Of a stretch of DNA of 54,651 bases, positions 1-47,389 are shown one piece after another (position 1 is the stretch's first letter; every line of letters begins with the position of its first letter). Source of the stretch: Candidatus Poribacteria bacterium (GTDB taxonomy: Bacteria; Abyssobacteria; SURF-5); assembly GCA_016215705.1 (NCBI GenBank), contig JACRIR010000197.1, forward strand, positions 1 through 54,651. The letters are read 5' to 3'. Below the pieces are notes generated by a model. That model did no database searches. It was not told the DNA's origin and was given only the letters and a program-made list of their open reading frames with translations. The position numbers and the translations under genes are program-made.

Positions 1-706
1 AATTATGCGAATTACACGAATGAACTCCTTCTTTTTGTCATTCGCGCTAAAGCTCGAATCCGTTTAATAACAATGAGTTATGCCCTCATGTTCATGAAAA
101 TCACGACGGAAATTAAAGAAAATGCAATGAAGTAGTACGGAGAGCCGTGGTTTCTCTTCGGTTTCCTCTGCGACCTTTGCGCCTCTGCGGTGAATAAACG
201 GCGTCTTGGACAGCAGTGATCCGCAGTCCAAAATCCAAAATCGGAAGATTCGTCACATTCTTAACCCATTTGTGTTCCTGAAATCATCATCTTTGTGCCA
301 TAACTCTAAACTCTAAACCTTGAACCACTTCTGTCATTCGCACGATTTGTTAACAAAAAGGCCGTTGCTCGGCTTCCCCCCGCCATGTACGATATGCATC
401 AGAGCATTGGCGCCGCTGCGCAGAGTCTCGACTCCCGGGTTCCGAGTCTCGTGTCAACCGGCACAAAGCACGAAAAAGAAAGGGACCAATCCGTCATGAA
501 AACCACGCCGAAACGTCGCAACCACCCGTTGCGCCTTTCTCCTCTTTCCGGACTCGCAACTCGTGACTCGCAACCCGCAACTCTTAAGAGTGCTTCCCCC
601 TCTTTCAACCAGAAACGAGAAACGCCGCGCCTTGCGCAACGCCTTTCACCTTGCTCTTTTCGCCTGCTCTCCCCCGAAGGTACCCGTGTTAAAGAAGAGA
701 AAGTTC
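1..706. repeat. Gene-free mosaic of short periodic repeats
   Basis: I see no credible gene here; the possible reading frames overlap each other and consist of repeat sequence. Nine-base-period phrases occur at 7-24 (gcgaattac, acgaatgaa) and, with an 8-9 base period, around 165-193. Seven-base-period phrases occur at 226-253, 302-329, 423-450 and 551-585; in the last, five consecutive heptamers are variants of gactcgc/aactcgt. 34-61 resembles the dispersed 'gtcattcgcg...cgaatcc' palindrome type. 96-142 matches two other blocks at about 16715 and 16786. The region ends where the TetR promoter begins. Confidence 0.7.
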
Positions 707-735
707 TTGACAGAGCGCTGGTCATATGATACAAT
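707..735 (+). promoter_or_regulatory. Sigma70-type promoter of the TetR gene
   Basis: TTGACA at 707-712 is followed after 17 bases by TACAAT at 730-735, a near-consensus promoter for the gene starting at 775. The -10 overlaps the left edge of the operator-like palindrome at 733-760, which is the usual arrangement for an autorepressing TetR protein. Confidence 0.7.
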
Positions 736-760
736 TTGGACTAACCGGTTAGTCCTAATT
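733..760. promoter_or_regulatory. Putative TetR operator (28-bp dyad)
   Basis: A perfect 18-bp palindrome, ggactaaccggttagtcc, lies at 738-755. Complementarity continues on both sides (aatt at 733-736 with aatt at 757-760) with a single mismatched pair. It overlaps the -10 and the expected transcription start of the TetR gene 15 bases downstream, so autorepression is the simplest reading. Confidence 0.65.
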
Positions 761-774
761 CAGCGAGGAGCCCA

Positions 775-1359
775 ATGGACAGCAAACAAAAAATCGTATC
801 CGAAGCCGCTAAACTCATTCATACCAAGGGATTCAATAACACCAGCGTGCAGGATATCCTCGACGCGACCGCTGTGACCAAGAGCAATTTTTACTATCAT
901 TTTGAGAGCAAAGAACAGCTCGGATTCGAGGTGCTTTCGCAGAGAATGCAATGGTTCTATGACAACATGATCGAGCCTCCTTCGCAGGCCGAGCTCGGAC
1001 CGGCAGAACAAGTGGACGCCTTTCTGGATAGAATCCTCGCTCTCGGCATCTCGCCCCTGGGCGAACTCGGCTGCCCATTCGGCAACCTTGCGCAAGAGAT
1101 GAGCGCTATCCATGAACCTCTGCGCCAGGCCCTGAGCGAATTCTTCAAAAACGGCGCTGAAAGACTGGAACAACGCTTTGAAGAGGGCAAGAAGGCGGGT
1201 GTGTTCAAACAGGACTTACCCTCGCGGCAGTTTGCCGAGTTCGTGCTCGCGCAAATCCAAGGGTCGTTCCTGCTGCGCAAAACTCATAAAGACCCTCATA
1301 TAATGGAACGCAACATCGAGATGCTGCGCAAATTGATCGAAGCTTACAAGCAACACTAG
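775..1359 (+). CDS. TetR/AcrR-family transcriptional regulator
   Basis: A 194-residue cytoplasmic repressor of the TetR family. The N-terminal helix-turn-helix spans about residues 20-48 and includes the TSVQDILDATAVTKSNFYYHF-type stretch. The C-terminal ligand domain contains a GCPFGNL motif near residue 100, which recalls the LmrA/YxaF-like TetR subgroup. The ATG start has a good Shine-Dalgarno sequence (gaggag at 765-770). A consensus promoter and an 18-bp perfect dyad immediately upstream suggest self-repression, and the two Fe-S proteins downstream in the same orientation are candidate targets. The stop codon (TAG at 1357-1359) lies inside the terminal repeat of an inserted element, so the original C-terminus may have been different. 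The ligand is unknown. Confidence 0.9.
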   Translation: MDSKQKIVSEAAKLIHTKGFNNTSVQDILDATAVTKSNFYYHFESKEQLGFEVLSQRMQWFYDNMIEPPSQAELGPAEQVDAFLDRILALGISPLGELGCPFGNLAQEMSAIHEPLRQALSEFFKNGAERLEQRFEEGKKAGVFKQDLPSRQFAEFVLAQIQGSFLLRKTHKDPHIMERNIEMLRKLIEAYKQH

Positions 1360-1464
1360 TGTCATGTCACACTTGAGCCTGCAAGTGTGAGCGTATGGTT
1401 TTGTAGGGGCACGGCGCGCCGTGCCCCTACGGGAACCGACAAAAGAGAGTTGACAGAACACTAG
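1356..1464 (+). mobile_element. MITE-like element, CTAG-ended family, copy 1
   Basis: A 109-bp non-coding element. Its left end, CTAGTGTCATGTCA (1356-1369), matches the reverse complement of its right end (1451-1464) at 12 of 14 positions. Both ends carry CTAG, which may be a 4-bp target duplication or part of the repeat. A perfect 28-bp palindrome sits in the centre (1403-1430). Two further copies lie in inverse orientation at 20922-21040 and 21037-21147. No transposase is encoded, so mobilisation would be in trans. The left end supplies the TAG stop of the TetR gene. Confidence 0.7.
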
Positions 1465-1468
1465 GGTC

Positions 1469-1591
1469 ACGAATCGCGCGAATGCCATGAATTACGAGAA
1501 TAAGGCAAAACGGATATTCACCTCAGCGGGAATGCCGTGATGCTTTCTGTTTCTTCGAGTTTTGACCATGAACCAGGAACCATGAACCGAG
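1469..1591. repeat. 9-base and 7-base periodic phrases before the Fe-S genes
   Basis: Four nonamers (acgaatcgc, gcgaatgcc, atgaattac, gagaataag) run from 1469 to 1504, directly abutting the end of the MITE-like element. Four heptamers (ttgacca, tgaacca, ggaacca, tgaaccg) run from 1562 to 1589, just before the ribosome-binding site of the next gene. A further heptameric phrase lies at 2696-2718, between the two Fe-S genes. Confidence 0.6.
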
Positions 1592-1609
1592 TTTCTTAAG
1601 GAGGAGCAC

Positions 1610-2698
1610 ATGAGTAAGGACGTTTATCAAAAGTTGGCCGAACATCTCGACGCGATGCCGCAAGGCTTCCCAAAAACCGCGAGCGGGGTTGAGATAAAAA
1701 TCCTGAAGAAGGTTTTCGACGAGGCGGAGGCCGACGTAGCCGCGCAGATGAAGCTTGTGCCGGAGGGTCCCGAGCAAGTGGCCGAACGCCTGGGCCGAAA
1801 CCCTAAAGAAATGGCCGAATTCCTTGAGAAGATGGCGTCGAAGGGCCAGATAATGGGCATGGGCCCGCGTGAGGGCCGCATGTACGCTGCGTTCCCGTTC
1901 CTCGTCGGCATTCACGAATTCCAGCTCGCGCGGATGGATAAGGAATACGTCGAACTGTTCGAGCATTATCTCGAGGAGGCGTTGGCCGAACAGTTGGGAA
2001 AAACACTGCCGGCCCAGGTGCGCGTGTATCCGGTGGAACAAGCGATCCCGAACGAGCTCACGATCCTTCCGTTCGAGAAAGTGTCAAACATGATTGAGAA
2101 GGCGCAATCCTGGGCGGTCTCCGACTGCATTTGTCGCAAAGAGATGAAGATGATCGGCAAGGGCTGCAACAAGACAATGAACAATTGCATCGCCTTCTCC
2201 GACGACCCGTCCGGATTCGACATCGAGTACCGAGGCGCAAGAAAGGCCACGAAGCAGGAGGCGCTCGACCTGCTGAAAAAGGCTGAGGAAGAAGGCCTGG
2301 TGCACAATTCGTGGAACATACAGGACAATCACGTATTTGTGTGCAACTGCTGCACGTGCTGCTGCGCAATCCTTCGCAGCGTGAAGATGGCCAAATCGCC
2401 CCATTTTCTGGCTAAATCGAATTACTTCGCGAAGATCGAGTCCGACACATGTGTCGCATGCGGCGTGTGCGCCGACGAGAGATGTCCGATGGGCGCCATC
2501 GAGGCGCGTGGCGAATACTATGAGGTGAATCCGGATCGCTGTATCGGCTGCGGTGTGTGCGTGGTCACGTGCCCGAGCGGCGCGCTTTCGCTCCAGCGTA
2601 AGTCTGAGGACCAGATCGACATTCCGCCGGATAACATAGTCGCGTGGACGATGGAGAAGGCGCAGAAGACCGGCCGCACGATGGAAGGGCTCATCTGA
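1610..2698 (+). CDS. Winged-helix, cysteine-rich 4Fe-4S protein (paralogue A)
   Basis: A 362-residue soluble protein in three parts. Residues about 30-85 look like a winged-helix domain (EQVAERLGRNPKEMAEFL). A middle region carries C173, C175, C186 and C193 and then an unusual CNCCTCCC cluster at 245-252. The C-terminus is a 2[4Fe-4S] ferredoxin with C281/284/287/292 and C311/314/317/321; the first cluster motif has one extra residue before its fourth cysteine. The start has a strong aaggagg site at 1598-1604. The next gene is a paralogue with the same layout. An electron-transfer or redox-sensing role is inferred from the cysteines and the DNA-binding-like fold. The partner is unknown; I recognise the ferredoxin part with confidence but not the biochemical role. 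Confidence 0.85.
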   Translation: MSKDVYQKLAEHLDAMPQGFPKTASGVEIKILKKVFDEAEADVAAQMKLVPEGPEQVAERLGRNPKEMAEFLEKMASKGQIMGMGPREGRMYAAFPFLVGIHEFQLARMDKEYVELFEHYLEEALAEQLGKTLPAQVRVYPVEQAIPNELTILPFEKVSNMIEKAQSWAVSDCICRKEMKMIGKGCNKTMNNCIAFSDDPSGFDIEYRGARKATKQEALDLLKKAEEEGLVHNSWNIQDNHVFVCNCCTCCCAILRSVKMAKSPHFLAKSNYFAKIESDTCVACGVCADERCPMGAIEARGEYYEVNPDRCIGCGVCVVTCPSGALSLQRKSEDQIDIPPDNIVAWTMEKAQKTGRTMEGLI

Positions 2699-2742
2699 TT
2701 CTTGATTTTGGATTCGTGCTCCGATCTCTTAAGGAGAACATC

Positions 2743-3867
2743 ATGCAGAAATCACCATTCAGAAAACTTGCTGAGCGATTCGACATGAACTTGACGGGTA
2801 TGCCCAAGAAGGATGGCGATTTTTCGCCCTCCTTCCTTCAGTACCTCGAGATTCTTTTTACGCCGGAAGAAGCCGAGGTTGCCTCGTTCTTGTCGGCTGA
2901 GCCAAAGCGTTTGACCGCCGAGGAAGTGGCCGAAAAGGCGGGACGCCCCGTCGGAGACGTCGAACAAGTCCTCGGTCGCCTTGTCGAGAAGAATGCGATC
3001 CTCGGATTCGGCGGCCAGTACATGCTGCCAATGACCCCACTGCTTCTCAATATTCACCAATTCAGGACGGCCGTTGATCAAGATGCCCTGAAAGCCAGCC
3101 AACTGTATCAGGATTTCTACATAAAGGACGGCTTCTATCGGTTCTATGAATCGTCCGCGCAGGGGACGCCCGTGCGCCGCGCAGTGCCTGTCGAGCAATC
3201 GATCTCCGACGGCCAGCATATATTATCGCATGAAGAGGTCAAGCTCTTCCTCGATGAAGCCAATATGGGGGCGATGGCGCTCGTGCCGTGCCCCTGTCGC
3301 AACCGCACAGAGAAGATGGGAAGACGCGAATGCAAAGACAAGCACGGTGTGGAGTCGTGCCTGTTTCTCGGGATGCCTGCGGTACTCATGGTCGGGCGTG
3401 GCGAAGGCAAACAGATTTCTCGCGAGGAAGCGGAAAGCTATGTCAAGGAGATGCGAGAACTGGGCCTCGTCATGATGACCGACAACGCAGCCGTCATGAA
3501 AGACGGCGTCGTCTGCTTCTGCTGCGGCTGTTGCTGTTCAATCACGCGGGGCCTCACTCGATGGAGCAATTCCCGGGCGTTTGCGCGCTCCAATTTCGTC
3601 GCGCGCGTCGGCGACGATTGCGCGCTATGCGGAACGTGTGTTGACCGCTGCATGTTCAAGGCTATATCCGTGCCCGACGGCGCCGGCAAGTTGCAGATCG
3701 ATGAGAGCAGATGCATGGGCTGCGGCGCCTGCACCGTCACGTGTCCGACCGAAGCGCTCCGGCTCGAACGCCTCGAACGAGAACCCATCTATGCGACGCA
3801 GTCGGAACTGCGCTCGAAGATAGCCGTCGAGAACGAGGCCGCAGGCCAGAAACGACGCCTGCAATAA
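2743..3867 (+). CDS. Winged-helix, cysteine-rich 4Fe-4S protein (paralogue B)
   Basis: A 374-residue paralogue of the upstream gene. The predicted winged helix lies around residues 55-90. The middle cysteines are C183, C185, C197 and C206, followed by CFCCGCCC at 258-265. Two standard ferredoxin motifs follow at C293/296/299/303 and C324/327/330/334. I place the start at the ATG at 2743, preceded by aaggag at 2731-2736; an in-frame upstream extension to 2644 would overlap gene A and has no homology to it. The 44-bp gap and shared orientation suggest co-transcription with gene A. Conservation of the middle cysteine pattern in both copies argues for a third metal site besides the two ferredoxin clusters. 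The function is not known to me. Confidence 0.85.
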   Translation: MQKSPFRKLAERFDMNLTGMPKKDGDFSPSFLQYLEILFTPEEAEVASFLSAEPKRLTAEEVAEKAGRPVGDVEQVLGRLVEKNAILGFGGQYMLPMTPLLLNIHQFRTAVDQDALKASQLYQDFYIKDGFYRFYESSAQGTPVRRAVPVEQSISDGQHILSHEEVKLFLDEANMGAMALVPCPCRNRTEKMGRRECKDKHGVESCLFLGMPAVLMVGRGEGKQISREEAESYVKEMRELGLVMMTDNAAVMKDGVVCFCCGCCCSITRGLTRWSNSRAFARSNFVARVGDDCALCGTCVDRCMFKAISVPDGAGKLQIDESRCMGCGACTVTCPTEALRLERLEREPIYATQSELRSKIAVENEAAGQKRRLQ

Positions 3868-3875
3868 GTCCGGCG

Positions 3876-3893
3876 AAAGGGAAATCCCCTTTT
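3876..3893 (+). terminator. Weak terminator-like hairpin after the Fe-S pair
   Basis: aaaggg (3876-3881) pairs with cccttt (3887-3892), and the hairpin runs into a stretch of four T. The stem is only six pairs, so this is a weak candidate for ending the Fe-S transcript. Confidence 0.3.
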
Positions 3894-3894
3894 A

Positions 3895-4024
3895 GAGACT
3901 GTCCCATAATTGGCGAACCAGGATGGGATTCTGTAGGTGCGAATCCATTCGCACAATATTGTCGGGTTCTTTCCGCTTCGCGCCCGCGAATAAATTCGCG
4001 CCTACAGAATTACGGGACAGTCTC
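3895..4024. mobile_element. 130-bp inverted-repeat element (family A, best copy)
   Basis: The outer arms gagactgtccc (3895-3905) and gggacagtctc (4014-4024) are perfectly complementary. Inner arms at 3928-3944 and 3994-4010 (attctgtaggtgcgaat against attcgcgcctacagaat) pair with one mismatch over 17 bases. There is no coding capacity. Related copies are at 39290-39368 (good), 38305-38395 (degenerate) and about 19064-19125 (partial). This is consistent with a non-autonomous mobile element. Confidence 0.65.
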
Positions 4025-4029
4025 AAATT

Positions 4030-4140
4030 CCCGCTTTTACCCTCATTTCTCCCGTCTTGCCCCTTTCTTGTCTGCCTCTTTGCGCTCTCTGCGCCTCGGG
4101 TCTGCGACCTTTTACCGTTTGATGATTCCCTTTTCCGTTT
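4030..4140. repeat. Pyrimidine-rich periodic phrases
   Basis: A run of 7-9-base units of the ccctttcttgtctgcc and ctctttgcgctctctgcg type. The stretch from about 4091 (gcctcgggtctgcgacc) onward closely resembles 15699-15750, which forms the first codons of a LolA-like gene. With the preceding inverted repeat it fills most of the gap before the GT39 gene. 4141-4237 should hold the promoter of that gene, but I see only a weak candidate there (TTCAAA, 17-base spacer, TATCGT). Confidence 0.5.
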
Positions 4141-4237
4141 TCTCCTATAGCATGAAACTTCAAAAAATGCGGGATTTATGCTATCGTAGTGTAGATTGGT
4201 CTCTCTATAGACTAATTGGAAAGAGTTCAAGGAATCA

Positions 4238-6013
4238 ATGATTGAGCAACAAAAAGCGATTTATTGCTGCAACGAGATACGATGGGGCGAAATCCAAGCG
4301 CAGAGCGACCATGGACCACCATCCCGGTTAGCGTGGGTGGTTGCCCTTCTTTTTGTGGCTGCCGTAACGGTGAGAGCGTGGGCGCTGGGTAGCTACGGTA
4401 TCAACAATGACGAGAATCTCTGGCATATTCGGAGCGCCGAATTTGTGAAGTCTCTGCTTGGACCTTTCGCTCCCGGAGACATTGCGGTCCCGAAGGATTT
4501 TGGAGACCATATCAACCTGGCCGTAAATCTGCTTGAGGGCAGCCGGAGAGTCATATCCCGCGAATATCCTTTTACGGCGCATATTGACACAGTGCACCCG
4601 GGTACGCCGATATCTTTCTTGATGGGGTTGAGCCATATCCTTCTCGCTCGAGGAAGCTCGTCATGGAGCCTGAATTGGCTTTCCGTCATCGCGGCCTCGC
4701 GCTTGCCCAATGTCATCGTCGGAGCTTCCATAGTTTTCGTTTTCTTCTACCTCGGCAAAGCGCTCGTCGGTTGGCGCGCGGCGTTGTTCGCCGCCGCCTT
4801 CGGGGCATTCGAGCCTTTCCTGGTCGGCTACAGCCGCGAGGCGCAATTGGACATGTCTGCGACGGTTTTCATCGCCGGCTCTCTGCTCTGCTATTTCAAT
4901 GCGCGCTGTGGCTCGGGCAAACAAAGACAATTGGCGATCTTCGGGGGCATATTCGGAGGGCTGGCTCTTGCGACGAATCCGTATGCTGTCTACATCTTTC
5001 CCGCGCTCCTCGCGGCCAGGTTGCTGTGGCAGCCACGGCGAGAAGAGAAGACGGGCGGAAAGCTGTTGTCCAGAGCCCTTCTTCCGGACGAGACGGATGT
5101 GTTTTACGCTCTGAGTTGGGCGTTGACTTTTGTCCTGGTGTATCCGAACATCTGGCCGAATCCGATATTGGGAGTGCGCGAGTGGTTTCGACTCGTCAAC
5201 GAAATGCCCCATCTGCAGACTGGCTCGGCGCTGAAACATTTTGCATTCTTGATTCATGGACCGATACACGTGCTGCCGTGGACGCTGCTCCTCGGACTCT
5301 TCGGCGGATATATGGGTATCAAGACGCGAGACCGTGCGGTCGTCGCCATTCTCGCGTGGCTGGGCAGTTATCTGCTATTTCTTTCAGTTCTCGCCGGGGA
5401 CATCAGTCTGAAGAGGATGCTCTTTCTTCTGCCCGCGTTGGTTCTGCTGGCGGGATATGGTCTCGATAGAATCATCCGGCGCATGGAAAGCAGAAATCGG
5501 AAGCCCAATCCCGGTATGGCGTACCCAGCGGCAATTTCTTTGTTGGTTGTCGCAGGACTCGCCGTAAACATATGGTGGTGGCCTTATCCCGATCTGTTCA
5601 CCTGGCCATGGCTTCCCGACCCGCAAAAGTGGTCTCCCCCAACTGAGGTCAGCGTGGGTGAAGGCATGTACCATGCAGTGGAATACATACATCAGTCCGA
5701 CGGAGAGAAAGCCAGGATCGCATGTTTGTCAGGCGCTAATAATGCCGCCTACTTCCATGACTCTTCTTTGGTGCACAACGCTCCCTCGACACTGCAGGAA
5801 TTGAAAGACCTGAATTGCGATTGGCTGGTTGTTCTCCCAAAATACGTTTATCGGGTCCCGCCTGTGAATGAAGTAATACGGTTTGCGAAGGATAATCGCC
5901 CGACACATATGACATGGCATCATCAGATTGAGACCACGCGCATGTTCGATTTGCGAGAATTCGGCCTCAGTGGGTCGCCGGCAAAAGCAAACGTTGTCAA
6001 CGGAATGAAGTGA
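4238..6013 (+). CDS. GT39-family (ArnT/PMT-like) membrane glycosyltransferase
   Basis: A 591-residue polytopic inner-membrane protein of the GT-C fold. A conserved acidic pair (D58-E59, in NNDENLW) lies in the first periplasmic loop after TM1, where PMT/ArnT-type enzymes hold their catalytic acid. About ten further hydrophobic segments follow up to residue 450, then a soluble C-terminal domain of about 130 residues. Family members transfer a sugar from a polyprenyl phosphate to an acceptor on the periplasmic side. The downstream GT2 of the DPM1 type is a plausible maker of that donor. The ATG start has aagga a few bases upstream. The end lies 12 bp before the amidotransferase gene, consistent with an operon. 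Donor and acceptor are not predictable. Confidence 0.8.
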   Translation: MIEQQKAIYCCNEIRWGEIQAQSDHGPPSRLAWVVALLFVAAVTVRAWALGSYGINNDENLWHIRSAEFVKSLLGPFAPGDIAVPKDFGDHINLAVNLLEGSRRVISREYPFTAHIDTVHPGTPISFLMGLSHILLARGSSSWSLNWLSVIAASRLPNVIVGASIVFVFFYLGKALVGWRAALFAAAFGAFEPFLVGYSREAQLDMSATVFIAGSLLCYFNARCGSGKQRQLAIFGGIFGGLALATNPYAVYIFPALLAARLLWQPRREEKTGGKLLSRALLPDETDVFYALSWALTFVLVYPNIWPNPILGVREWFRLVNEMPHLQTGSALKHFAFLIHGPIHVLPWTLLLGLFGGYMGIKTRDRAVVAILAWLGSYLLFLSVLAGDISLKRMLFLLPALVLLAGYGLDRIIRRMESRNRKPNPGMAYPAAISLLVVAGLAVNIWWWPYPDLFTWPWLPDPQKWSPPTEVSVGEGMYHAVEYIHQSDGEKARIACLSGANNAAYFHDSSLVHNAPSTLQELKDLNCDWLVVLPKYVYRVPPVNEVIRFAKDNRPTHMTWHHQIETTRMFDLREFGLSGSPAKANVVNGMK

Positions 6014-6025
6014 GGGGGTAGCTCT

Positions 6026-7987: not shown

Positions 7988-8056
7988 AGAGTTTGCGCCG
8001 TCTGCTCTAAACATGGTTCGCCTTTGCCCTGCGCCGGACGCGATGAGGGGAAAACG

Positions 8057-10385: not shown

Positions 10386-10468
10386 GCTATCGACCACTGT
10401 ATCAACAACGTGCTCGCGCATAGCCATTTGACGCGACGGGATTCGTCGGTTAGGGAGGCCGGTGACAA

Positions 10469-11335: not shown

Positions 11336-11363
11336 CGCCGCTTCGCGACCCAGGGATTACCTA

Positions 11364-13530: not shown

Positions 13531-13550
13531 GGACGGTTCGCGAACCGCCC
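13531..13550. repeat. Small intergenic palindrome
   Basis: ggacggttcgcgaaccgccc is palindromic with one mismatch (perfect core 13534-13547) and is followed by ctacaa, as in the other GCCCCTAC-ended palindromes of this window. It sits in the 115-bp gap between the permease and ATPase genes of the O-antigen exporter and could form a hairpin within that transcript. Confidence 0.5.
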
Positions 13551-13613
13551 CTACAAGACGTCAGCATTTCTCACGTCGCCGTTTATCTGCGTCTATCGAC
13601 GGTTCCCGTTACC

Positions 13614-15164: not shown

Positions 15165-15342
15165 CCTACGAACCTCGCAGCGCGGCATAGCCACAACTGG
15201 ACAGCGCGCATCGGGCGCGATCAATCGCGCCCCAGAAAATAGGGGACACGATGCGAACATCATGTCCCCGATTTTATTGATTCATGGCTGTAGGGGCACG
15301 ATTCATTGCGCCCGTGTGATCAATACTCGTTAGGTTCGTGCA
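15165..15342. repeat. Nested palindromes, including a GGGGACACGATG hairpin
   Basis: This part of the gene-free 15087-15670 gap holds nested inverted repeats. Outer arms acgaacct (15168-15175) and aggttcgt (15332-15339) enclose gggcgcgat/atcgcgccc (15213-15221, 15224-15232) and a hairpin aggggacacgatg/catcatgtccccg (15241-15253, 15258-15270). The last belongs to the same hairpin family as those at 17712, 21814 and 27151. The structure looks like insertions of small palindromic elements into one another. The rest of the gap (15343-15670) holds 9-base-period phrases around 15428-15460 and a possible promoter at 15473. Confidence 0.6.
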
Positions 15343-16432: not shown

Positions 16433-16840
16433 TTCACCGCAGAGGCGCAAAGGGAGACGCTGAGCCGAAGAAGAAACATTATTAGCCACAGATGCACACT
16501 GCGCGGCGAAGCCGCAATCAAAGAGGAAGAGGGAATCCGCAGATTTCGCTGATTTGCACAGATTCAGGGAAGAAGAAGAAGAAGAAGAAGAAGAAAGAGA
16601 AGAAAGAGAAGAAAAAGAGTTGGATCACGAATGACACGAATTTTGCGAATTACGCGGATAAAGAAGTCCCTTGATCTAGACTGATTTACGCAGATTTCAG
16701 GGAAAAGAAGAAAAGAAAATCACGACCAAAATTGACGATTTCGAACGTGAGTAGTACAGATAAACACGGATTAAGAAGAAGAAAAGAAAATCGCGGCAAG
16801 AATTCAGGATTTTGAAGGTGATTAGCGCAGTGGATACGGA
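16433..16840. repeat. Gene-free mosaic of periodic phrases between two paralogues
   Basis: Contains ttcaccgcagaggcgcaaag (16433-16452), the reverse complement of a phrase at 174-193; nonamers of the cgcagattt/cgctgattt type at 16538-16564 and 16680-16700; acgaatgac, acgaatttt, gcgaattac, gcggataaa at 16627-16662; an (AAG)n-rich run at 16569-16620; and two tandem copies of a block starting gaaaatcacg/gaaaatcgcg (about 16715-16764, 16786-16839) also found at 96-142. No gene is visible; a lysine-rich frame through the AAG run is an artefact. Confidence 0.65.
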
Positions 16841-20006: not shown

Positions 20007-20097
20007 TGTCGTCTCTCCTTGTTGGTTTTGTCTATTCTTGTACAGGTTCCCCTATTCCCCTGTGTCTCTTCCTTTCGCCTTTGCCCTTTCGCCCTCT

Positions 20098-20802
20098 CTA
20101 CCCCGGACGCATACCGCGAAGACAGAAGCGGATTATCTCTTCCTCGATGGCGTCCGCATTCTCCGGTGGCTGCGGCGAGAGCAACCAGCGCCCCATTACG
20201 ACAGATATTCCCATTATGACCGTCGCCAGCACCGCCGGCTCTATCTCGCTAACGCGTCCCGATTCAATGCCGTCCTTCAACAACCCGTGCAGTTCCGCCC
20301 CGACGCCGGAGTGAAGCCGCATCGTGTACTCGGCGTCGACCGGTGGCCCCTCGATCAATATCAGCCGCGCAAATGCGGCATTGCTCCTGAAGTAGTCGAA
20401 CGTGGCCCTGAGAGCGGCAACCACCTGTTCTTCGACCGACATCCCCGGCCTCCGCGCCTCAATCCACATGCGGTGCATCTCCCGGTTGGCCCGGCGCACG
20501 AGCGCGTCGTACACCTCACGCTTGTCCCGGAAGTAGACGTAGAACGTGCCCGCCCCCAGGTCGGCCCGCTCAGTAATTTCGCGGGTGGTGGCATCGTCAT
20601 AACCTTCCTCGAGAAAGATTGACTGAGCCGCGTTAAGCAGCCTCTCGCGTGTCTCACGGCTTCGCCGCTCGGACCTGTTCTCACCCGGAGTCAGGCCTTG
20701 GAATTCGACTTTGGGGCCTGTCGACTCCGAACGGCGCACCTCCCGTTTGCGGGGCTGCCTCTGCTGTTTCTTTTGAGATGATTTGATGCGTTTAACGGCC
20801 AT
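20098..20802 (-). CDS. TetR-family regulator of the fatty-acid module
   Basis: A 234-residue repressor. A basic N-terminal tail (KRIKSSQKKQQRQPRKR) precedes the TetR domain (RERLLNAAQSIFLEEGYDDATT), whose helix-turn-helix ends in GAGTFYVYFRDKREVYDAL. The ligand domain resembles FadR/PaaR-like TetR proteins that sense acyl-CoA; that is an inference from the neighbouring acyl-CoA dehydrogenase and MaoC genes. I take the ATG at 20802: a consensus promoter at 20846-20874 would start transcription near 20840, so the upstream ATG at 20874 lies inside the -35 and cannot be used. No good Shine-Dalgarno sequence precedes 20802. Confidence 0.88.
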   Translation of the reverse strand: MAVKRIKSSQKKQQRQPRKREVRRSESTGPKVEFQGLTPGENRSERRSRETRERLLNAAQSIFLEEGYDDATTREITERADLGAGTFYVYFRDKREVYDALVRRANREMHRMWIEARRPGMSVEEQVVAALRATFDYFRSNAAFARLILIEGPPVDAEYTMRLHSGVGAELHGLLKDGIESGRVSEIEPAVLATVIMGISVVMGRWLLSPQPPENADAIEEEIIRFCLRGMRPG

Positions 20803-20874: not shown

Positions 20875-20921
20875 GCGAAGGAAGCCTCTCTCTAGTCAGT
20901 CGTTGCGCTCCCCTGCAATGG

Positions 20922-21040
20922 CGGGTGTTCCGTCAACTCTGTTTTGTCGGTTCATGAAAAGGGCGCAGTCCCGCCGAGGCGGGACGCCCCTACAAAAGTA
21001 TACGCTCGCACTTGCAGGCTCGAGTGCGAACTGACACCAG
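20922..21040 (-). mobile_element. MITE-like element, CTAG-ended family, copy 2
   Basis: This 119-bp copy is in inverse orientation to the element at 1356-1464. Conserved blocks are gtcaactctgttttgtcgg (20932-20950) and tacgctcgcacttgcaggct (21001-21020). The central palindrome has changed sequence to gtcccgcc/ggcgggac but remains self-complementary. CTAG is replaced by CGGG at one end and CCAG at the other. The last four bases are shared with the adjacent copy 3. Confidence 0.65.
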
Positions 21041-21147
21041 TGTCAGGTCAAGTTAATCTTGTCGGTATTTGTGGGGGCACGGCGCGCCGTGCCCCTACGA
21101 AGAACCATGCGCTGATCCCAAGAGATCTTGTCATGACAGTATACTAG
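21037..21147 (-). mobile_element. MITE-like element, CTAG-ended family, copy 3
   Basis: A 111-bp copy in tandem with copy 2, sharing CCAG at 21037-21040. It keeps the 28-bp central palindrome of copy 1 (21071-21098, one mismatch) and ends in CTAG (21144-21147). The half beyond the palindrome is more diverged (aaccatgcgct ... tgtcatgacagtatactag). The remainder of the gap, 21148-21340, shows no gene or clear signal. Confidence 0.6.
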
Positions 21148-21773: not shown

Positions 21774-21981
21774 GGGCGCAATGAATTGCGCCCCTACAGA
21801 CGCGGATGAAGAAAATCGGGGACACGATGTCGCATCGTGTCCCCGATTCTCCCAAACAGTTTGTTGCCGAAATGTCCCGGCCGTAACAAAAATGGATTCC
21901 CGAGTTCGCGGCAATGATAGAAGTCGCGGAATTCCTGAAATATGATGCCCTCTCCAAGGGGAACTGTACAGGAATCCATTT
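21774..21981. repeat. Cluster of three inverted repeats
   Basis: In the gene-free 21656-22054 gap: gggcgcaat/attgcgccc (21774-21782, 21785-21793) followed by cctaca; a family C hairpin with perfect 16-base arms (21814-21829, 21833-21848) around tcg; and aaatggattcc/ggaatccattt (21890-21900, 21971-21981). I see nothing else in the gap. Confidence 0.6.
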
Positions 21982-34093: not shown

Positions 34094-34095
34094 CT

Positions 34096-34545: not shown

Positions 34546-34570
34546 TGTGCCTCATCCCCTTTCTTGCAAA

Positions 34571-35989: not shown

Positions 35990-37264
35990 TCAACCGCTGC
36001 TTCCTTCCAGACCTTCAACCTTCAACTCTTGACTTTCGACTTCCGATCCATGAATAGCCAGCCATCCGATGCTTGCCCACAACAAGAAAGCAGTCACAGG
36101 ATCACCAAAAACCGGAGTGAAAAACGAGTAGAGCACAATTGTGGATATGAACGAGAGAACGGCAAATGAACGATTGCTTTCAATATACACTGACCTTACA
36201 AAGAAGAAGAAGCACAGAAGCAGGAAGACCCCGCCCGTTACATAGGAAGACAGAATCTGGTTGTGTATCATCCAGAAAGGATACAAATCCCATTCGTTCA
36301 AGCCCCACGGGTCCAAGAAGAGGTACCGGCCAAAACCCATGCCAAAGCAGCGAGTTGTCCAGTTGTCATGCATTTCATCCAAAGCCATCTGCCAGAAAAG
36401 CAACCTCAGTTTAAGGGTTTGGTCTCCGGACAACGCTTCCGCTCCCAGCAGGGGAACATCGGATAGAGCCGCATACCGCTCGGATAGAAACTCCGAACGA
36501 GCTGCAAACAAAGAAAACAGAATTATGACGATAGCCAGGACACCGAGTATCTTCCACCGCGATTGGACTCCCCTCTTCAGCGCGTAGTACGCGCCATGAG
36601 TGAATAATGTCCAAACCACAGCCAGATGGAATCCTCGTGTTCGGATACTGATCATGTATACTGCGAAAAACACGGCGAAAACGATGTGCCACATTCTTAT
36701 ACGGCGATTCTGAAACAGGTCGTTCAGGATTGCGCAGAAGACAAACAAGAGCGGTATCCGCAAGTTGAAGGCAATTTCAGTGCTCATCGTTGTTCCGAGG
36801 TAGCGGGGCGTTTCTTCTATTCCATAGACCAACAGGATCGGCGTCGCGAGCACAAAAATGCCGGATATCAAGCCAGGCAGGTTTATCTTTCGGAAATACA
36901 CTCCAAAAAGGATCGAGGCAACAAAGAAAATCTGGGAAAAATCGCGCAGCACCGATTCCATTGGATTCTTCAGCAATGAGTATGGCAACAATACGCCGGC
37001 AAAAACAAAGAAAACAATCGTATTCCGCGCCATCTTTCCATTCCTGTAAAAAATTAGCAGGAGAAGATTGCAGCCGACCAGCGCGATCTCGAAGACGGAC
37101 GTCGAAATGTCGGAAAGCGTGAAACCGGCCACCCGCCCTGATATGGCGGCCAGCCACAACAGGGCGGCCGCAGCGTACAGCGGCAACACGGAAACATCTA
37201 TGCGCTGATGTAGATTGAGCAAATCAACAGGTTTCTTTGCCATATCCATTGTTGGTGTCAGCAT
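35990..37264 (-). CDS. O-antigen ligase/polymerase-like membrane protein (Wzy candidate)
   Basis: A 424-residue protein with 10-12 predicted transmembrane segments and a large periplasmic loop late in the sequence (about residues 280-345; QTLKLRLLFWQMALDEM ... GMGFGRYLF). This is the layout of the Wzy_C/O-antigen ligase family. In a Wzx/Wzy system it would polymerise repeat units in the periplasm. The last 18 residues (GSEVESQELKVEGLEGSSG) are encoded by five consecutive heptamers (36012-36046) of the same type as the intergenic phrases, so the C-terminus appears to have been extended by repeat DNA. Short spacing to the sulfotransferase gene upstream (16 bp). Confidence 0.8.
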   Translation of the reverse strand: MLTPTMDMAKKPVDLLNLHQRIDVSVLPLYAAAALLWLAAISGRVAGFTLSDISTSVFEIALVGCNLLLLIFYRNGKMARNTIVFFVFAGVLLPYSLLKNPMESVLRDFSQIFFVASILFGVYFRKINLPGLISGIFVLATPILLVYGIEETPRYLGTTMSTEIAFNLRIPLLFVFCAILNDLFQNRRIRMWHIVFAVFFAVYMISIRTRGFHLAVVWTLFTHGAYYALKRGVQSRWKILGVLAIVIILFSLFAARSEFLSERYAALSDVPLLGAEALSGDQTLKLRLLFWQMALDEMHDNWTTRCFGMGFGRYLFLDPWGLNEWDLYPFWMIHNQILSSYVTGGVFLLLCFFFFVRSVYIESNRSFAVLSFISTIVLYSFFTPVFGDPVTAFLLWASIGWLAIHGSEVESQELKVEGLEGSSG

Positions 37265-37280
37265 TGGTTTCCTCAGAACA

Positions 37281-38261: not shown

Positions 38262-38304
38262 CGGACCACCATTGAACCTGTTCCGCAATTGCAGCTTTGA
38301 ATCA

Positions 38305-38395
38305 GAGCCCCGCAGACGTGAATTCATGCGCACAGGAATTCCAGCCTGCTTCAGGCCCCGCGCCTGAGAACAAGTTGACACCTGCAGAATTGCCG
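38305..38395. repeat. Degenerate family A element
   Basis: The stretch cagacgtgaattcatgcgcacaggaattcc ... cccgcgcctgag ... acacctgcagaattg follows the same order of blocks as 3931-4010, with many substitutions. It occupies the gap between the sulfotransferase and GT2 genes and explains an apparent N-terminal extension of the former. Confidence 0.45.
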
Positions 38396-38411
38396 GACAG
38401 ATTCTGTTGCA

Positions 38412-39251: not shown

Positions 39252-39289
39252 CCGGATCTGTCCTTCAATGCGCGTTCAGACCATGCCAT

Positions 39290-39368
39290 TGTAGGCGCGA
39301 ATCTGTTCGCACAGTATCTTCAGCCCTTTTCTGCGCCGCGCCTGCGAATGAATCGTCGCCTGCGCAAT
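39290..39368. repeat. Family A element, truncated copy
   Basis: tgtaggcgcgaatctgttcgcacagtatcttcagcccttttctgcgccgcgcctgcgaat... aligns over about 80 bases with 3932-4010 and lacks the outer gagactgtccc arms. It fills the gap between two glycosyltransferase genes. Confidence 0.6.
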
Positions 39369-39389
39369 CAAGAGACAGACTCATTTCAC

Positions 39390-40580: not shown

Positions 40581-40665
40581 TCCGAATCTGCCTGCGCAAA
40601 GGTTTCCTTGCCATTAGGCGTTCGGCCTGTCAGCACGCAGATTCGGGATAACATTCCAGAATGCA

Positions 40666-42021: not shown

Positions 42022-42042
42022 GTCGGAATTCCTTGGAATTTG

Positions 42043-43455
42043 CTAGACCCCTGTCCCCATGAACACGGCAGGTATGGTTTTCAATATAATTTTGAAATCG
42101 AGTGACAACGACAGATTATCGATATATTCCAGGTCAAGGCGCGCCCATTCATCAAAATCAACATTGTTCCTTCCACCCACCTGCCACAAGCACGTGAGCC
42201 CGGGCCTCACGGAAAGCCTGCGCCTCTGCCAAATGTCATATCCTTCAACTTCCGATGGTATCGGCGGCCTTGGGCCAACGATGCTCATGTCGCCTTTGAG
42301 CACGTTTATGAATTGGGGCAACTCATCGAGGCTGTATCTTCTAAGAAGTCTGCCGATTGCCGTGATCCTCGGGTCCTCCTTTATCTTGAACACCGGCCCT
42401 GACATCTCGTTCAGATGCGCAAGCTCCCTTTTCAACAACTCGGCGTTGTCGACCATTGTTCGGAACTTGAGCATGCTGAATTCTCTTCCATTCAGGCCAC
42501 ACCTCTTCTGTTTGAAGAAGACGGGGCCTTCGGACGTGAGCTTGATCCCCAAAGAGATCGCCAATAGCAGAGGCCCTGCAAGCACAAGAACGACCGCCGA
42601 TACGGCAATATCCACGATCCTCTTTGTGGCAGCGACTTCATCTAATCGCGATATCGGATTGAAACTCAAGAACGACCATTCTCTCAGCTTCTCCATCTTC
42701 GTATGCGCAATCTCATGAGCGTAAAAGTCGGCGGCAATGCTGGCCTTTCTGCCCATCTGCTCACAAACGAGAACGGCCTTCTCGATTTTGTCAAGCCATT
42801 TTCGAGGGACCACAAAGATCACTTCGTCAACCGGCATAGCCGTGAGGGCTTCCTGGATTCCGTCAAGTGTGCCGATGACTGTGCCGCTGTCAAGCTTTCT
42901 CCCAACTAAAGAGACATCTCTATCAAGAAAGCCAAGAATCCTGAGTCCCCACTCTTTATGATGTTGTATGAGAGCGGCAAGTCTTTGCGCCCTCAGCCCG
43001 GTTCCGACGATGAGAATACCTCTGTAATTGAGACCCCTTTTGCGGATGTTATGCAGAAACACATAGAGAGAGAGCCTTTCTCCCATTAGTAAAACGGCGT
43101 TGAGAATAAGAAATAAGAATATCAGAGTTCTGCTTATGGCTTGAATCTTGAAAATGAAGAGAGAACTCATGAGTATTATTCCGCCCAGAAAGACGGTCTT
43201 CACAGGCGGGAGGAGAACATGCCCGATGGCCAATGTCCTGATAGGTGAATACGCCTTGTTCCCGTACAGGAGAACCGCCCACAAAGGCAGAACAATATAC
43301 AAAAGAAAAAGGTAGTGTGAAATCGGGCTTAGAGGAGCCAGGGATAAGGTCGCGCTATGTCTAAGAAAATACGCAAGGAAGAAGGAGGCCACGGTGCTCG
43401 CCAGATCAAGAGACAACTGTATCCTCCGCAGGAGGCTATGTTTCTCTTTGAGCAT
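42043..43455 (-). CDS. Polyprenyl-phosphate phosphoglycosyltransferase (WbaP-like)
   Basis: A 470-residue enzyme that starts repeat-unit assembly by transferring a sugar 1-phosphate onto undecaprenyl phosphate. There are four N-terminal transmembrane helices, a CoA_binding_3-type Rossmann domain ([17 protein letters not shown], about residues 148-260), then a re-entrant helix and the catalytic domain with [36 protein letters not shown] and WQVGGRN. The ATG start has gagg a few bases upstream. Located 21 bp after the flippase start-side neighbour in the operon order wzy/TPR - this gene - wzx. Confidence 0.93.
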
Positions 43456-43549
43456 GAATCCTCAACGCCCTTTCGCGCTATTGCTGCTTCCGTCGCCAAC
43501 GACAGATATACGAGCGGGATTGGCTCCTCGCACATACATCTTTTGTATT

Positions 43550-46500
43550 CTATGATTTGATCCTGGTATGAGACTCATTGGTCTCAACCGTGTCTTGCAC
43601 TTGTCGCAGCATCAGCGTGGCATACTCGTTTCCCGCGTCGCAGCACAAAGCCTTGTCAGTCTGCTTCCGCGCAGAGCCCGCGACAATTCCTACCTTGAGG
43701 AATTGGGCAGAAGTCAAGTCGCCCTTTATACGAATTCTCACAGCCACAACTTCCCCGCAACGCGGGAAATCCGTCGGATAGGCTCTGCCTTCGCTGTAAA
43801 TCCTGTGGTCGTGCCGAAAGACGATTTGCCAATCTTCGTCGCAGAATTGAACGCTTGGGTGATAGTCCGGAGGTAATCGGTCGCTGAACCGCCAATAGTA
43901 GGTGATGAATCGCGCCTCTTCGGCAAGTTCCATGCCCTCGACAAAAACGGGAACCCTCTCACTGCTCAAGGTATAGCCAACCAGCGTAATTTTTCCGCCA
44001 AAGTCAACGTTACATGGAACCTCGGGAGTCAATGCCGCCAGGCGAGCGGACCATGCCTTTGACTGCGAGCCGGCAAGCTCACACAGGCGTACTAGAGAAG
44101 AAGCATGCGCAGGAAGAATCTCAACAGCCTTGCCATAAGCGTCGATAGCGTCATCTTTCCGTCCCATCTTCTCGAATCCCATCCCGAGATAGTGCCATAT
44201 GAGATGTTTCTGCCGCCACAGGCGCACTGTTTCGTCGTGTCGAGCCGCGAGAGCGCCGAGAATGGCTGTCCCTTCTTCTTCCCGACCACCCAGAATCGCC
44301 CCGGCGCCACGAATAAAGTCGGCTGTGAGTTTGTCAGAATCTGTGCGCAATGCCACGGTGTTAAGGATTCTCCTGGCGCGATCATATTCGTCGGCTGATA
44401 GCCGCGAGTTATTGATGACTAATCGATAAAGGTGGTCTATTGATGCGTTCCATTGCGGGGCGTCGTCAAACGCACCCGCCGCGGAGGAGAGCTCGGCGGC
44501 CCCAAACAGAGCCTCAGAATTCGCCCAGTCCTGGCGCAAAACGCTTAAATACTCGCGCATCGCTTCTCGGTTGCGTCCGCGTCCCCTGAGACGACGCGCC
44601 TCCGCAATCTCATCGACAAGCCGCTGGCGCAGAAGGGCCTGGTGCTCCGAAGCCGCCTCTTCTCGCGCCTGCCAATCGCCCAATATGCCAAAGACTGCAC
44701 AGCGCCTCCGCGCGACTGAAAGCTTGATTTGGAGAGGGGCACGGTTATCATAACCGCGCGCGCCCTTGAGCGAGGGCGCTGCCTCATAGTCGGCGAAGAC
44801 CACGCTCCTGAAGAAATGCGGCCGCCACGCCGGAAACCCCGTTGGCTGCGGCCCGAGACGTTGAGCGTCCGCCAACTCCTCTATTACTTCGAGACATGCA
44901 ATGACGCCCTCCCAATCGCCCATATCCCAAAGGATACTGCACAGGCGTTCATAAGCCCCCTGTGTTTTGGGGGTCACGGAGAGCAGGTCTATGTCGCTGC
45001 CGGCGAATGCCCGCTTTGGGGGCCCGATCTCATTCGCGAATGTGGATGTGCCTCCGTTTGCGACAAACGAATACACCCGGTCGGCATAATCCGGATCGGA
45101 GCGCAATGCGGCTCGAAAATACTTACGGGCCATGTCCACTGGGTCCTCCTCGAGGCCATGCCGCCGGCCGACGTTCCCGGCGAGCATGAGTTGACCGGCA
45201 TCGAAAAGTATAGCGGGCTTGTTGGGCGCAAAGGCCACCCCTACTTCCGCTCGATGCGCGGCCTGTTCCGACGTCTGATTGAGTTCGCCAAACACGCGGC
45301 CAAGCGCCAAATGATACCGGGCTACGGTTGGAGCGCCATCGATTGCGCGCCTCAAGAAGTTCTCCGCCTGCAAGAGCAATGGCCGGCGCTGGTCGTGCAA
45401 CTGAGGAGTCAGGCTCTTCACGAGAGCAAACACGACCTTCTCCATTTGGCTTGTGTCCTCTTGCCCTTCTGCCGACGCGAGCAGCGGCGCTCTCTTCGCC
45501 GCTTCCTGCGTCGCTATTTCATCAGCGCGTCTGAGCGCATTGTCAGCGGAATAATAGAGGTAGCGGGGATTGCGAGGATCCAGATCCACCGCGTTTCTTA
45601 GGAACACTCGACTCCGTTCCGCGGGACTGCTTGGTAGAGAAAGGGCCCCATTCAGTTTCGGATTTTGGACTTTAGACTCTCTTAGGAGGCCGTTTCCCGT
45701 CTCCCCATTTCCCGGTTTTCCAGTTTCCCCGCTACTCATGAGAAAGAAGTAGTCATCCGGCCCTTCTTCCGGAAACGCGAGCGCCAGATACTGATTGAAA
45801 TAGACGTCCGCCACCGCGTTTCTGAGAAGAGGGCGTGAAGCAAATGCGGCAAGGGCGAGCACAAACACCGCCGTGGCAACTCGAATCGGGCGTGGGCCAA
45901 GCGGCAGAATCCAGCGCCCTGCGATGGAGGATGAATCTTCCCCCCTCCTTGGAATGCGGGGAACCGCCAATGCAAGGCCGGCCACTGTCGCAAATATGAT
46001 TCCGTTCGACGTTATCTTGCTGAGGTTATAGTCAACAAAACTGTGAAGCAGCATCGCTGAAGCGCCAAGCGAAGCGCCAAGCGCGACCCATCGCTTAAAC
46101 GGATCTTCTGTTCGCATGGCGGAGCGGAAAGAACTTGCCGCGAGCCAGAAACTGCCGATAGCAAGCACGACTCCGCCCGCGATACCCGTTTCACAGAATA
46201 CTTGCAGCCAGTCGTTGTGCAGGTAATCCGCCCATGCGTCGCCAAACCGAGGAGATTGATACGCGGGGAAAACCGTCCCGAAGGACCCCAACCCCGTCCC
46301 GAAGAGCGGATAATCGCGAATGAGAGTGAGCGCGCTACGGGCAAGGTCCGCGCGGTCGATCCATGATGTGGATTGACCATTCACCGCATCCTCGATGCGA
46401 CTGATCGCCACTTCCATCCCGATGCCGGCGGCAACAAGGAACATTGCGCCCACAATTAGGAGCACCGCAAGCGTGTAGCGGCGGAATCCGGACCCGGCTG

Positions 46501-47389
46501 CGAGAAAAAGAACAAAACCTATGAGAGAGATAAACAGACAAATGCCCCCCGCCCGCGAAAGCGAGAAGAAAACTGCGGCAAGCATGACGACGGAGAAAGC
46601 TGCGATGATTACTTGCTGGTAGACAGTAGAAGAGGAAAGCGCCAGGACAATGCGCTGTCGAAAGGGGATTCCCCTGAACCGAGTCCTCATTCTTTTTTCA
46701 GGTCGACCCCCAATTCCTACGAGTAGTCCAAGCAAAACAGGGATCACCATCTCCAGCAGACCGGCAAAGTGGTTCTTATTGTGAAAAGTGCCGGTGACAG
46801 CTTCCAGATGGTATTGCCGGAGGACCCAGAAAATGTGTTTGTGTCCGGAGAACTGTTCGGCAAAACCGTAAAGCGCCTCAAATGAGCCCACTGCCGCCAG
46901 CGCGAGGACTATTCCAACTGTTTGCCGGCGCGTGCGTGTAAAATTGGCGACAACAAAGAACACAGCCATCAGCGTGGCCACACGAACGATTTCCATTCCG
47001 GTAGCGTAAGGAAAGAGCGATAGGGTCCTTGCTTGTTCCGATGCGGGATAGTCCGTAATGGCTTGGCAATATACCCGCCATGTGCTTGGAGATATGCTGT
47101 TGAGAACGTCGGGTGAGAAAGGCGTGAGTTGGAATAGCGCCGTCCCCAGGAAAAGCAGAAGAAACCCCCAAGCGGGACTTCGGATGACACTCACGCTGCC
47201 GCGCCATGCGCCTTGCGCCAGCCAGCAGACCATAAGCAAGAGTCCAAGGAAAGCAAGCGAAAATCTCGCCCACGGCGCCACTCCTCCTAGTGCAAGCGGA
47301 GGAAGCGTTATCATGGCGATCAGGATAGCTTCGATTAGTATGTCGAATTCGTCGGCGCGCCGGCGCTCTTTCTTGTATCCTTCAGACAT
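43550..47389 (-). CDS. Giant O-antigen ligase/polymerase fused to TPR repeats and a C-terminal beta domain
   Basis: A 1279-residue protein. Residues 1-520 have about 12 transmembrane helices with Wzy/WaaL-family motifs (TGTFHNKNHFAGLLEM, LFGTGLGSFGTVFPAY, HNDWLQVFCETGIAGG). A linker at about 548-590 (GKPGNGETGNGLLRESKVQNP) is encoded by 7- and 8-base periodic DNA (45654-45730). Residues about 590-1120 are degenerate TPR helices (FLRRAIDGAPTVARYHLALG, DAIDAYGKAVEILPAHASSL). The last 150 residues form a beta-rich domain (ITLVGYTLSSERVPVFVEG, ITYYWRFSDRLPPDY) like those attached to some membrane glycosyltransferases. It probably polymerises or ligates glycan in the periplasm, with the TPR part organising partners. 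Such triple fusions are uncommon. Confidence 0.85.
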   Translation of the reverse strand: MSEGYKKERRRADEFDILIEAILIAMITLPPLALGGVAPWARFSLAFLGLLLMVCWLAQGAWRGSVSVIRSPAWGFLLLFLGTALFQLTPFSPDVLNSISPSTWRVYCQAITDYPASEQARTLSLFPYATGMEIVRVATLMAVFFVVANFTRTRRQTVGIVLALAAVGSFEALYGFAEQFSGHKHIFWVLRQYHLEAVTGTFHNKNHFAGLLEMVIPVLLGLLVGIGGRPEKRMRTRFRGIPFRQRIVLALSSSTVYQQVIIAAFSVVMLAAVFFSLSRAGGICLFISLIGFVLFLAAGSGFRRYTLAVLLIVGAMFLVAAGIGMEVAISRIEDAVNGQSTSWIDRADLARSALTLIRDYPLFGTGLGSFGTVFPAYQSPRFGDAWADYLHNDWLQVFCETGIAGGVVLAIGSFWLAASSFRSAMRTEDPFKRWVALGASLGASAMLLHSFVDYNLSKITSNGIIFATVAGLALAVPRIPRRGEDSSSIAGRWILPLGPRPIRVATAVFVLALAAFASRPLLRNAVADVYFNQYLALAFPEEGPDDYFFLMSSGETGKPGNGETGNGLLRESKVQNPKLNGALSLPSSPAERSRVFLRNAVDLDPRNPRYLYYSADNALRRADEIATQEAAKRAPLLASAEGQEDTSQMEKVVFALVKSLTPQLHDQRRPLLLQAENFLRRAIDGAPTVARYHLALGRVFGELNQTSEQAAHRAEVGVAFAPNKPAILFDAGQLMLAGNVGRRHGLEEDPVDMARKYFRAALRSDPDYADRVYSFVANGGTSTFANEIGPPKRAFAGSDIDLLSVTPKTQGAYERLCSILWDMGDWEGVIACLEVIEELADAQRLGPQPTGFPAWRPHFFRSVVFADYEAAPSLKGARGYDNRAPLQIKLSVARRRCAVFGILGDWQAREEAASEHQALLRQRLVDEIAEARRLRGRGRNREAMREYLSVLRQDWANSEALFGAAELSSAAGAFDDAPQWNASIDHLYRLVINNSRLSADEYDRARRILNTVALRTDSDKLTADFIRGAGAILGGREEEGTAILGALAARHDETVRLWRQKHLIWHYLGMGFEKMGRKDDAIDAYGKAVEILPAHASSLVRLCELAGSQSKAWSARLAALTPEVPCNVDFGGKITLVGYTLSSERVPVFVEGMELAEEARFITYYWRFSDRLPPDYHPSVQFCDEDWQIVFRHDHRIYSEGRAYPTDFPRCGEVVAVRIRIKGDLTSAQFLKVGIVAGSARKQTDKALCCDAGNEYATLMLRQVQDTVETNESHTRIKS
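45654..45730. repeat. Periodic phrase DNA inside the polymerase/TPR gene
   Basis: Four heptamers (agtttcg, gattttg, gacttta, gactctc; 45654-45681) are followed after nine bases by five octamers (cgtttccc, gtctcccc, atttcccg, gttttcca, gtttcccc; 45691-45730). Both lie in frame in the linker between the membrane domain and the TPR domain. The heptamer type recurs in intergenic DNA, for example gtccaaa/atccaaa at 226-239 read on the other strand. Confidence 0.75.

What the first reader, a model, noticed from the sequence alone, without database searches (positions are those of the whole stretch)
1..47389. Dispersed 'phrase' repeats with strict 7-, 8- or 9-base period
Many intergenic stretches are built of consecutive variants of a heptamer or nonamer. 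Heptamers: 226-253, 302-329, 423-450, 551-585, 1562-1589, 2696-2718, 20071-20098, 36012-36046, 45654-45681. Octamers: 45691-45730. Nonamers: 7-24, 1469-1504, 16538-16564, 16627-16662. Period and register are kept while the bases drift, and the same words recur in unrelated places. This is not ordinary microsatellite DNA. It resembles the heptameric STRR repeats of cyanobacteria in form but mixes several periods and words. A slippage-prone copying or template-switching process is a possible source (inference).
Basis: partly seen in the sequence, partly recalled or inferred. Interest (0 to 1): 0.72.

Follow-up and report, generated by a model that had tools for sequence, protein, structure and literature searches.

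The report
Dispersed 31-base repeat-built intergenic modules
The gaps between genes of this bacterium are strewn with short DNA blocks of about 31 bases, each built from 3-5 copies of a 7-10 base word; some of the same words occur in distant bacterial phyla and often sit in pairs that can fold as hairpins, so they look like tiny spreading elements rather than random copying stutter.

Summary
Intergenic DNA of this genome has sharp lag peaks at 7 (with 14, 21), 9/18, 10/20 and 8, 24-300 times above shuffled DNA; coding DNA has little. Some listed intervals are individually weak and the 45.65-45.73 kb pair lies in frame inside a gene. The arrays are not ordinary slippage tracts. The best-studied word (AATCCAA) ends in one fixed phase and is mostly 31-33 bp long in this genome, in Nostoc and in other phyla; arrays of every period peak near 28-35 bp. 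An exact 25-mer of it occurs in at least eight named phylum-level groups; a second word (CGCAGAG, period 9) gives 106 hits against 1 in its control over 23 genomes. Each word is patchily distributed. In many genomes, less so here, arrays form inverted pairs that fold as hairpins. Sister genera lack the arrays at the orthologous sites compared, or carry other words there. Most likely these are REP/BIME-like dispersed modules, whole or decayed hairpin arms, with later in-register homogenisation. The enzyme is unknown: reverse transcriptases are missing from three of six array-bearing genomes, and RAYT is only a candidate. Related known cases: heptameric repeats of cyanobacteria, Xanthomonas and Beggiatoaceae.

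The parts
226..242 (.). truncated AATCCAA-family module (period 7, 2.3 units)
   Evidence: TRF; genome-wide search lists C137:225-238
302..329 (.). period-7 array AACTCTA/AACCTTG
   Evidence: 15/21 lag-7 matches, (borderline after window-wide correction)
423..450 (.). period-7 GAGTCTC words arranged as an inverted pair
   Evidence: 13/21 at lag 7, weak alone; inversion seen directly in sequence
551..585 (.). period-7 array GACTCGC/AACTCGT, about 33 bp
   Evidence: 19/28, beyond all shuffles
1562..1589 (.). period-7 AACCATG array just upstream of a ribosome-binding site and start codon (gene 1610-2698)
   Evidence: 16/21, beyond all shuffles; genes
2696..2718 (.). AATCCAA-like array directly on the stop codon of gene 1610-2698
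   Evidence: 11/16, weak alone; word match seen in sequence
20071..20098 (.). CCTTTCG/AGGCGAA-word array
   Evidence: 13/21 at lag 7, weak alone; word is frequent in own arrays
36012..36046 (.). period-7 array ACCTTCA...GACTTCC, 35 bp, at the 3' end of the predicted ORF 35990-37264(-)
   Evidence: 21/28, beyond all shuffles; ORF
45654..45730 (.). two adjacent arrays (period 7, then about 7/8) inside the 1279-aa ORF 43550-47389(-), in frame
7..24 (.). ACGAAT-word fragment (period 9) at the contig end
   Evidence: 6/9, weak alone
165..194 (-).
   Evidence: sequence; word family
1469..1504 (+). period-9 ACGAAT-word array
   Evidence: 16/27; CACGAAT 170 vs 31 reversed control in 707 kb
16436..16464 (+).
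   Evidence: sequence
16538..16564 (+). period-9 GCAGATT-word array
   Evidence: 10/18, weak alone; same word elsewhere in own genome and in G041
16627..16662 (+). period-9 ACGAAT-word array, 36 bp
   Evidence: 18/27, beyond all shuffles

Best explanation
The 'phrases' are short dispersed modules of about 28-35 bp whose inside is 3-5 copies of a 7-10 bp word. Shown: for the best-studied word the module has defined ends and a preferred length; words recur at dozens of unrelated loci and in other phyla; modules lie between genes in either orientation; in many genomes they form inverted pairs around unrelated loops and can fold as hairpins; sister genomes lack them or have other words at the orthologous sites compared. 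Inferred: they spread as units into tolerated gaps like REP/BIME or MITE elements, by an enzyme supplied in trans or by host repair, and travel rarely between phyla. Also inferred: within an array, slippage or template switching later homogenises and replaces words without losing register, giving the drifting look. In this genome most copies are single or decayed arms.
For: AATCCAA arrays, seeds free of phase bias: last base in phase 2 (...GGATT|) in 9/12 unselected own arrays, 22/31 in other phyla, 5/5 in Nostoc; lengths pile up at 30-34 bp in own, G030, Acidobacteria, Nostoc and others, with a second own peak at 15-18. Arrays of all periods peak near 28-35 bp. Genome-wide recurrence 56 vs 0. 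Named phyla. CGCAGAG 106 vs 1 over 23 genomes. Patchy: 12/60, 16/149 Acidobacteria of which three have 5 or more, 8/60 for CGCAGAG; G049 is rich in one word and lacks the other, G030 the reverse, so families spread independently. Inverted vs direct partners: Acidobacteria 13:0, Latescibacterota 5:0, Chloroflexi 18:5, G041 8:1, Nostoc 10:2. Hairpin folds z -4.6 to -13.5. Unrelated loops between similar arms in one acidobacterium. Absent or replaced at orthologous sites. About nine in ten of 140 word hits are intergenic, few in divergent gaps, no strand bias against genes.
Against: No transposase or target-site duplication was tied to the modules. A single module is not itself a hairpin. In the window's own genome inverted partners are few (4 of 45; direct 7). 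Apart from AATCCAA and CGCAGAG, sharing of heptamer words with other phyla is significant only for G041 (z 5.0), not for cyanobacteria. Orthologs show word replacement at the same site, which insertion alone does not explain.
Confidence: 0.5

Rival explanations
1. Replication slippage alone: local seeds expand because 7 bp (and 8-10) suits the polymerase, and mutation makes them drift (the proposal of Mrazek and colleagues, as cited in PMC4679880 and PMC4692102).
For: Heptamers dominate here as in many genomes; longer arrays exist in cyanobacteria; units within an array are homogenised (G030 AATCCAA vs G232 AATCCGA at one site).
Against: Does not predict shared words at unrelated loci (56 vs 0), fixed end phase, a 31-33 bp length peak or the same 25-mer in eight phylum-level groups.
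Confidence: 0.12
2. Ectopic template switching or short gene conversion between existing arrays and hairpin arms is the main engine: arrays are old fixed features whose words are copied from other loci in register.
For: In Nostoc orthologs with about 85% identical flanks every species has arrays after the same stop codon but with different words and kept register; word changes in register inside arrays; arms of pairs carry independent variants.
Against: Does not explain empty orthologous sites or how words reached distant phyla.
Confidence: 0.2
3. Binding sites kept by selection (a DNA- or RNA-binding regulator, translational control near start codons, as suggested for TAACTGA repeats).
For: Some modules abut start or stop codons.
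Against: No strand bias relative to genes, promoter-rich divergent gaps avoided, lineage-specific presence and in-frame copies inside proteins.
Confidence: 0.08
4. Fossils of tandem-repeat DNA made by a telomerase-like reverse transcriptase (DRT10/UG17 type), whose template boundary would fix the end phase.
For: DRT10 makes repeats of 9 nt and other lengths with a template boundary (PMC12632851); AATCCAA arrays have a fixed end phase.
Against: RVT_1 is absent from array-bearing G002, G041 and G059. The two own RTs are a group II maturase (over its cut-off) and an unclassified RT that scores best on the generic RT model; the UG17 model scores both about equally. DRT10 cDNA is protein-primed.
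Confidence: 0.05

Closest known systems
GGGAATC heptameric repeats of Xanthomonas and GGGGATT of Nostoc (PMC4692102)
   Same: Intergenic heptamer arrays, most often four units, paired in convergent inverted orientation in Xanthomonas, found between the same genes but variable between related species.
   Different: Different words, G-quadruplex theme; restricted there to those genera, no shared word across many phyla reported.
TAACTGA direct repeats of Beggiatoaceae (PMC4679880)
   Same: Heptamer repeats near start codons, patchy across distant lineages, horizontal transfer suspected without a mechanism.
   Different: One exact word, 2-6 copies in the main genome; regulatory role proposed; no fixed-length module described in the passages read.
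STRR repeats of heterocystous cyanobacteria (own knowledge; cited in papers)
   Same: Tandem heptamers in gaps between genes.
   Different: Here several periods (7-10), many phyla, defined module ends.
REP/BIME elements, GTAG- and CGTC-tagged (PMC3733652, PMC2817692)
   Same: 20-40 bp, many copies, intergenic, inverted pairs, several phyla.
   Different: REPs are single palindromes with a GTAG or CGTC tag; these modules are periodic and not palindromic alone.
DRT10 tandem-repeat cDNA (PMC12632851)
   Same: Short repeat units with a defined boundary.
   Different: Protein-primed cDNA in phage defence; no genomic insertion known to me; RT missing in several genomes here.

Membership tests
Slippage microsatellite/SSR | Array length varies freely with no preferred length, ends in any phase | tested here: not met
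   AATCCAA arrays: fixed end phase, 30-34 bp peak
Heptameric intergenic repeat class (STRR / GGGAATC / TAACTGA) | Tandem 7-mers mainly between genes | tested here: met
Heptameric intergenic repeat class (STRR / GGGAATC / TAACTGA) | Mostly about four units, inverted pairs | tested here: met
   Length mode 28-35 bp; inverted pairs in other phyla, few in own genome
Heptameric intergenic repeat class (STRR / GGGAATC / TAACTGA) | Period 7 only | tested here: not met
   Periods 8, 9 and 10 also present
REP/BIME | 20-40 bp, dispersed, extragenic | tested here: met
REP/BIME | Each unit a palindrome with GTAG or CGTC tag | tested here: not met
   A single ACGAAT module folds no better than shuffles (z -0.6); no constant tag seen at module ends
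REP/BIME | Mobilised by a RAYT flanked by the repeats | tested here: inconclusive
   RAYT present (L325, NF047646 over cut-off) and Y1 in all six array-bearing genomes, but also in most others (41/60); flanking repeats not examined
MITE | Terminal inverted repeats plus target-site duplication | tested here: inconclusive
   Inverted arms yes; no consistent target duplication seen by eye at junctions
DRT10/telomerase-like products | Cognate RT and template RNA in the genome | tested here: not met
   No RVT_1 in G002, G041, G059; template RNA not searched

The most novel reading that the evidence does not exclude
Each word family is an independent lineage of about 31-bp mobile DNA modules that has crossed at least eight bacterial phylum-level groups with word, ends and length conserved, copied by an enzyme not yet recognised and distinct from known REP/RAYT and reverse-transcriptase systems.
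Probability: 0.22. Interest if true: 0.85.

Novelty: new variant of a known kind. Interest (0 to 1): 0.6.

Why it matters
About a quarter of the intergenic bases examined here lie in gaps that carry these modules. Heptamer repeats have been reported genus by genus and put down to slippage or regulation. Fixed length, fixed ends and the same word in distant phyla turn this into a testable question of what copies a 31-bp block. It also warns genome readers: such blocks can open in-frame extensions of proteins (QNPKSK-type peptides).

Tried and rejected
A general shared heptamer vocabulary across phyla was tested and found only for AATCCAA-type words and with G041. Co-clustering of modules with GTAG/CGTC REPs beyond gap length: none (13 observed, 14.1 expected). 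Co-clustering of different word families: overall not significant (16 vs 13.3), a few pairs suggestive. Reverse transcriptases as required enzyme: rejected. Y1/RAYT as discriminating gene: not discriminating. Mirrored copying between the two arms of a pair was looked for by eye and not seen: variants differ between arms. Rfam: only rRNA in the window. Literature search for the words themselves: no hits. Viral contigs hold the words (38 stretches for AATCYAA; at least 120 for CGCAGAG) but the reversed control also hits (15, partly the same arrays) and host contamination cannot be excluded.

Full report
What was checked. The window is one contig (C137) of an unnamed 5.47 Mb draft genome in 270 contigs, 92% complete. 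Only two other genomes of its family came up among 60 relatives. I built a simple hexamer gene finder (44 genes in the window) and used it to separate genes from gaps.

Is the signal real? Yes. Over 74.7 kb of gap DNA the counts of highly self-matching stretches peak at lags 7, 14 and 21, then 9/18, 10/20 and 8, tens to hundreds of times over dinucleotide shuffles, and are low in coding DNA. De novo calling finds 85 arrays where shuffles give about one per period. The word TTGGATTTTGGATT has 56 exact copies in the genome and none read backwards. Several of the fourteen listed intervals are weak by themselves and the 45.65-45.73 kb pair is in frame inside a gene.

What the units are. For the commonest dispersed word, AATCCAA, seeds of any rotation were extended in both directions. 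The array ends after ...GGATT in 9 of 12 unselected own copies, 22 of 31 copies from other phyla and all 5 from sampled Nostoc stretches, and lengths cluster at 30-34 bp in most sets; the own genome has a second peak at 15-18 bp. Many copies outside the own genome were found through a 14-mer or 25-mer of the word, which biases their minimum length but not the phase of further extension. Arrays of periods 7 to 10 peak at about 28-35 bp although unit sizes differ (the detection limit removes arrays under about 18-21 bp). Free slippage should give neither defined ends nor a preferred length.

Across bacteria. In 23 genomes, most of them chosen for that word, the unrelated period-9 word CGCAGAGNNCGCAGAG gives 106 hits against 1 for its reversed control. 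In 60 genomes the two words are each patchy (12 and 8 genomes; 5 shared, three of these one family), and G049 and G030 are each rich in one only. In 149 acidobacteria only three have five or more AATCCAA hits. The claim does not extend to all words: other heptamers are shared beyond composition only with G041.

Architecture. In other phyla arrays have an inverted partner within 150 bp far more often than a direct one; in the own genome this is rare. In the acidobacterium G062 similar arms flank unrelated loops at several loci. The period-9 word forms the same ACCGCAGAG...CTCTGCGGT type of design in the own genome and in a phycisphaeran, and a 28-bp near-perfect stem in G010. Five such structures fold with z -4.6 to -13.5. 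In G041 a CACGAA hairpin is nested inside a CAGAT hairpin. In the own genome neighbouring phrases are often joined by GAAGAAG-like purine runs; this was seen by eye and not tested.

Position and turnover. Of 140 word hits in 707 kb, about nine in ten lie between genes; word strand shows no bias against gene strand and divergent gaps are poor in hits. Orthologous gaps of sister genera lack arrays present in the other genome. In G030 a module follows the start codon of a gene and adds NPKSKIQNPKS in frame; G232 has AATCCGA units there, G233 none. In Nostoc orthologs with about 85% identical flanks the species have arrays or repeat-like stretches after the same stop codon but with different words. 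So both gain/loss and word replacement occur.

Enzymes. RVT_1 is missing in three of six array-bearing genomes. The own RTs are a group II maturase and an unclassified RT. A RAYT with a DnaA-like tail is present in the own genome, and Y1 transposases occur in all six array-bearing genomes but in most others too. GTAG-type REP hairpins are also present but do not cluster with the modules.

Conclusion. The repeats belong in form to the known kind of intergenic heptamer repeats (PMC4692102, PMC4679880) and behave like REP/BIME elements without meeting the REP definition. New here are the module view (fixed ends and length for one word, common length across periods 7-10) and exact word sharing over many phyla with patchy presence. 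The copying mechanism is inferred, not shown.

Noticed in passing
window 1403-1430, 13531-13554, 15290-15316, 21071-21098, 21774-21797 and others: GTAGGGGC...GCCCCTAC hairpins of GTAG-REP type; GTAGGGGC 50 vs 19 in reversed control over 707 kb, GTAGGGGCG 32 vs 6.
   Followed up: partly
L325 56-1030 (G000:C225): REP-associated tyrosine transposase with a C-terminal DnaA-like stretch.
   Followed up: partly
own genome stretches, e.g. L002, L007, L020: TTCGCTTCGCTCAGAATGAC (13 vs 0) and TCATTCCCGCGAA (5 vs 0), resembling CGTC-type REPs.
   Followed up: no
window 1365-1465 and about 20900-21100: A longer dispersed repeat around the GTAG hairpin, with AAGTGTGAGCGTATGGTTTT on one side and AACCGACAAAAGAGAGTTGAC on the other.
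   Followed up: no
window 43550-47389 (-): 1279-aa ORF carrying a phrase-encoded peptide GETGKPGNGETGNGLLRESKVQNPKL in frame.
   Followed up: partly
window 53490-54651: 5S and partial 23S rRNA genes at the contig end.
   Followed up: no
L323 885-1979 (G000:C52): A 364-aa reverse transcriptase that fits no curated class above cut-off; from memory it resembles RTs of diversity-generating retroelements.
   Followed up: no
L169 3920-4290 (G041): Two near-identical CACGAA hairpins in a row, nested within CAGAT-word arms.
   Followed up: partly
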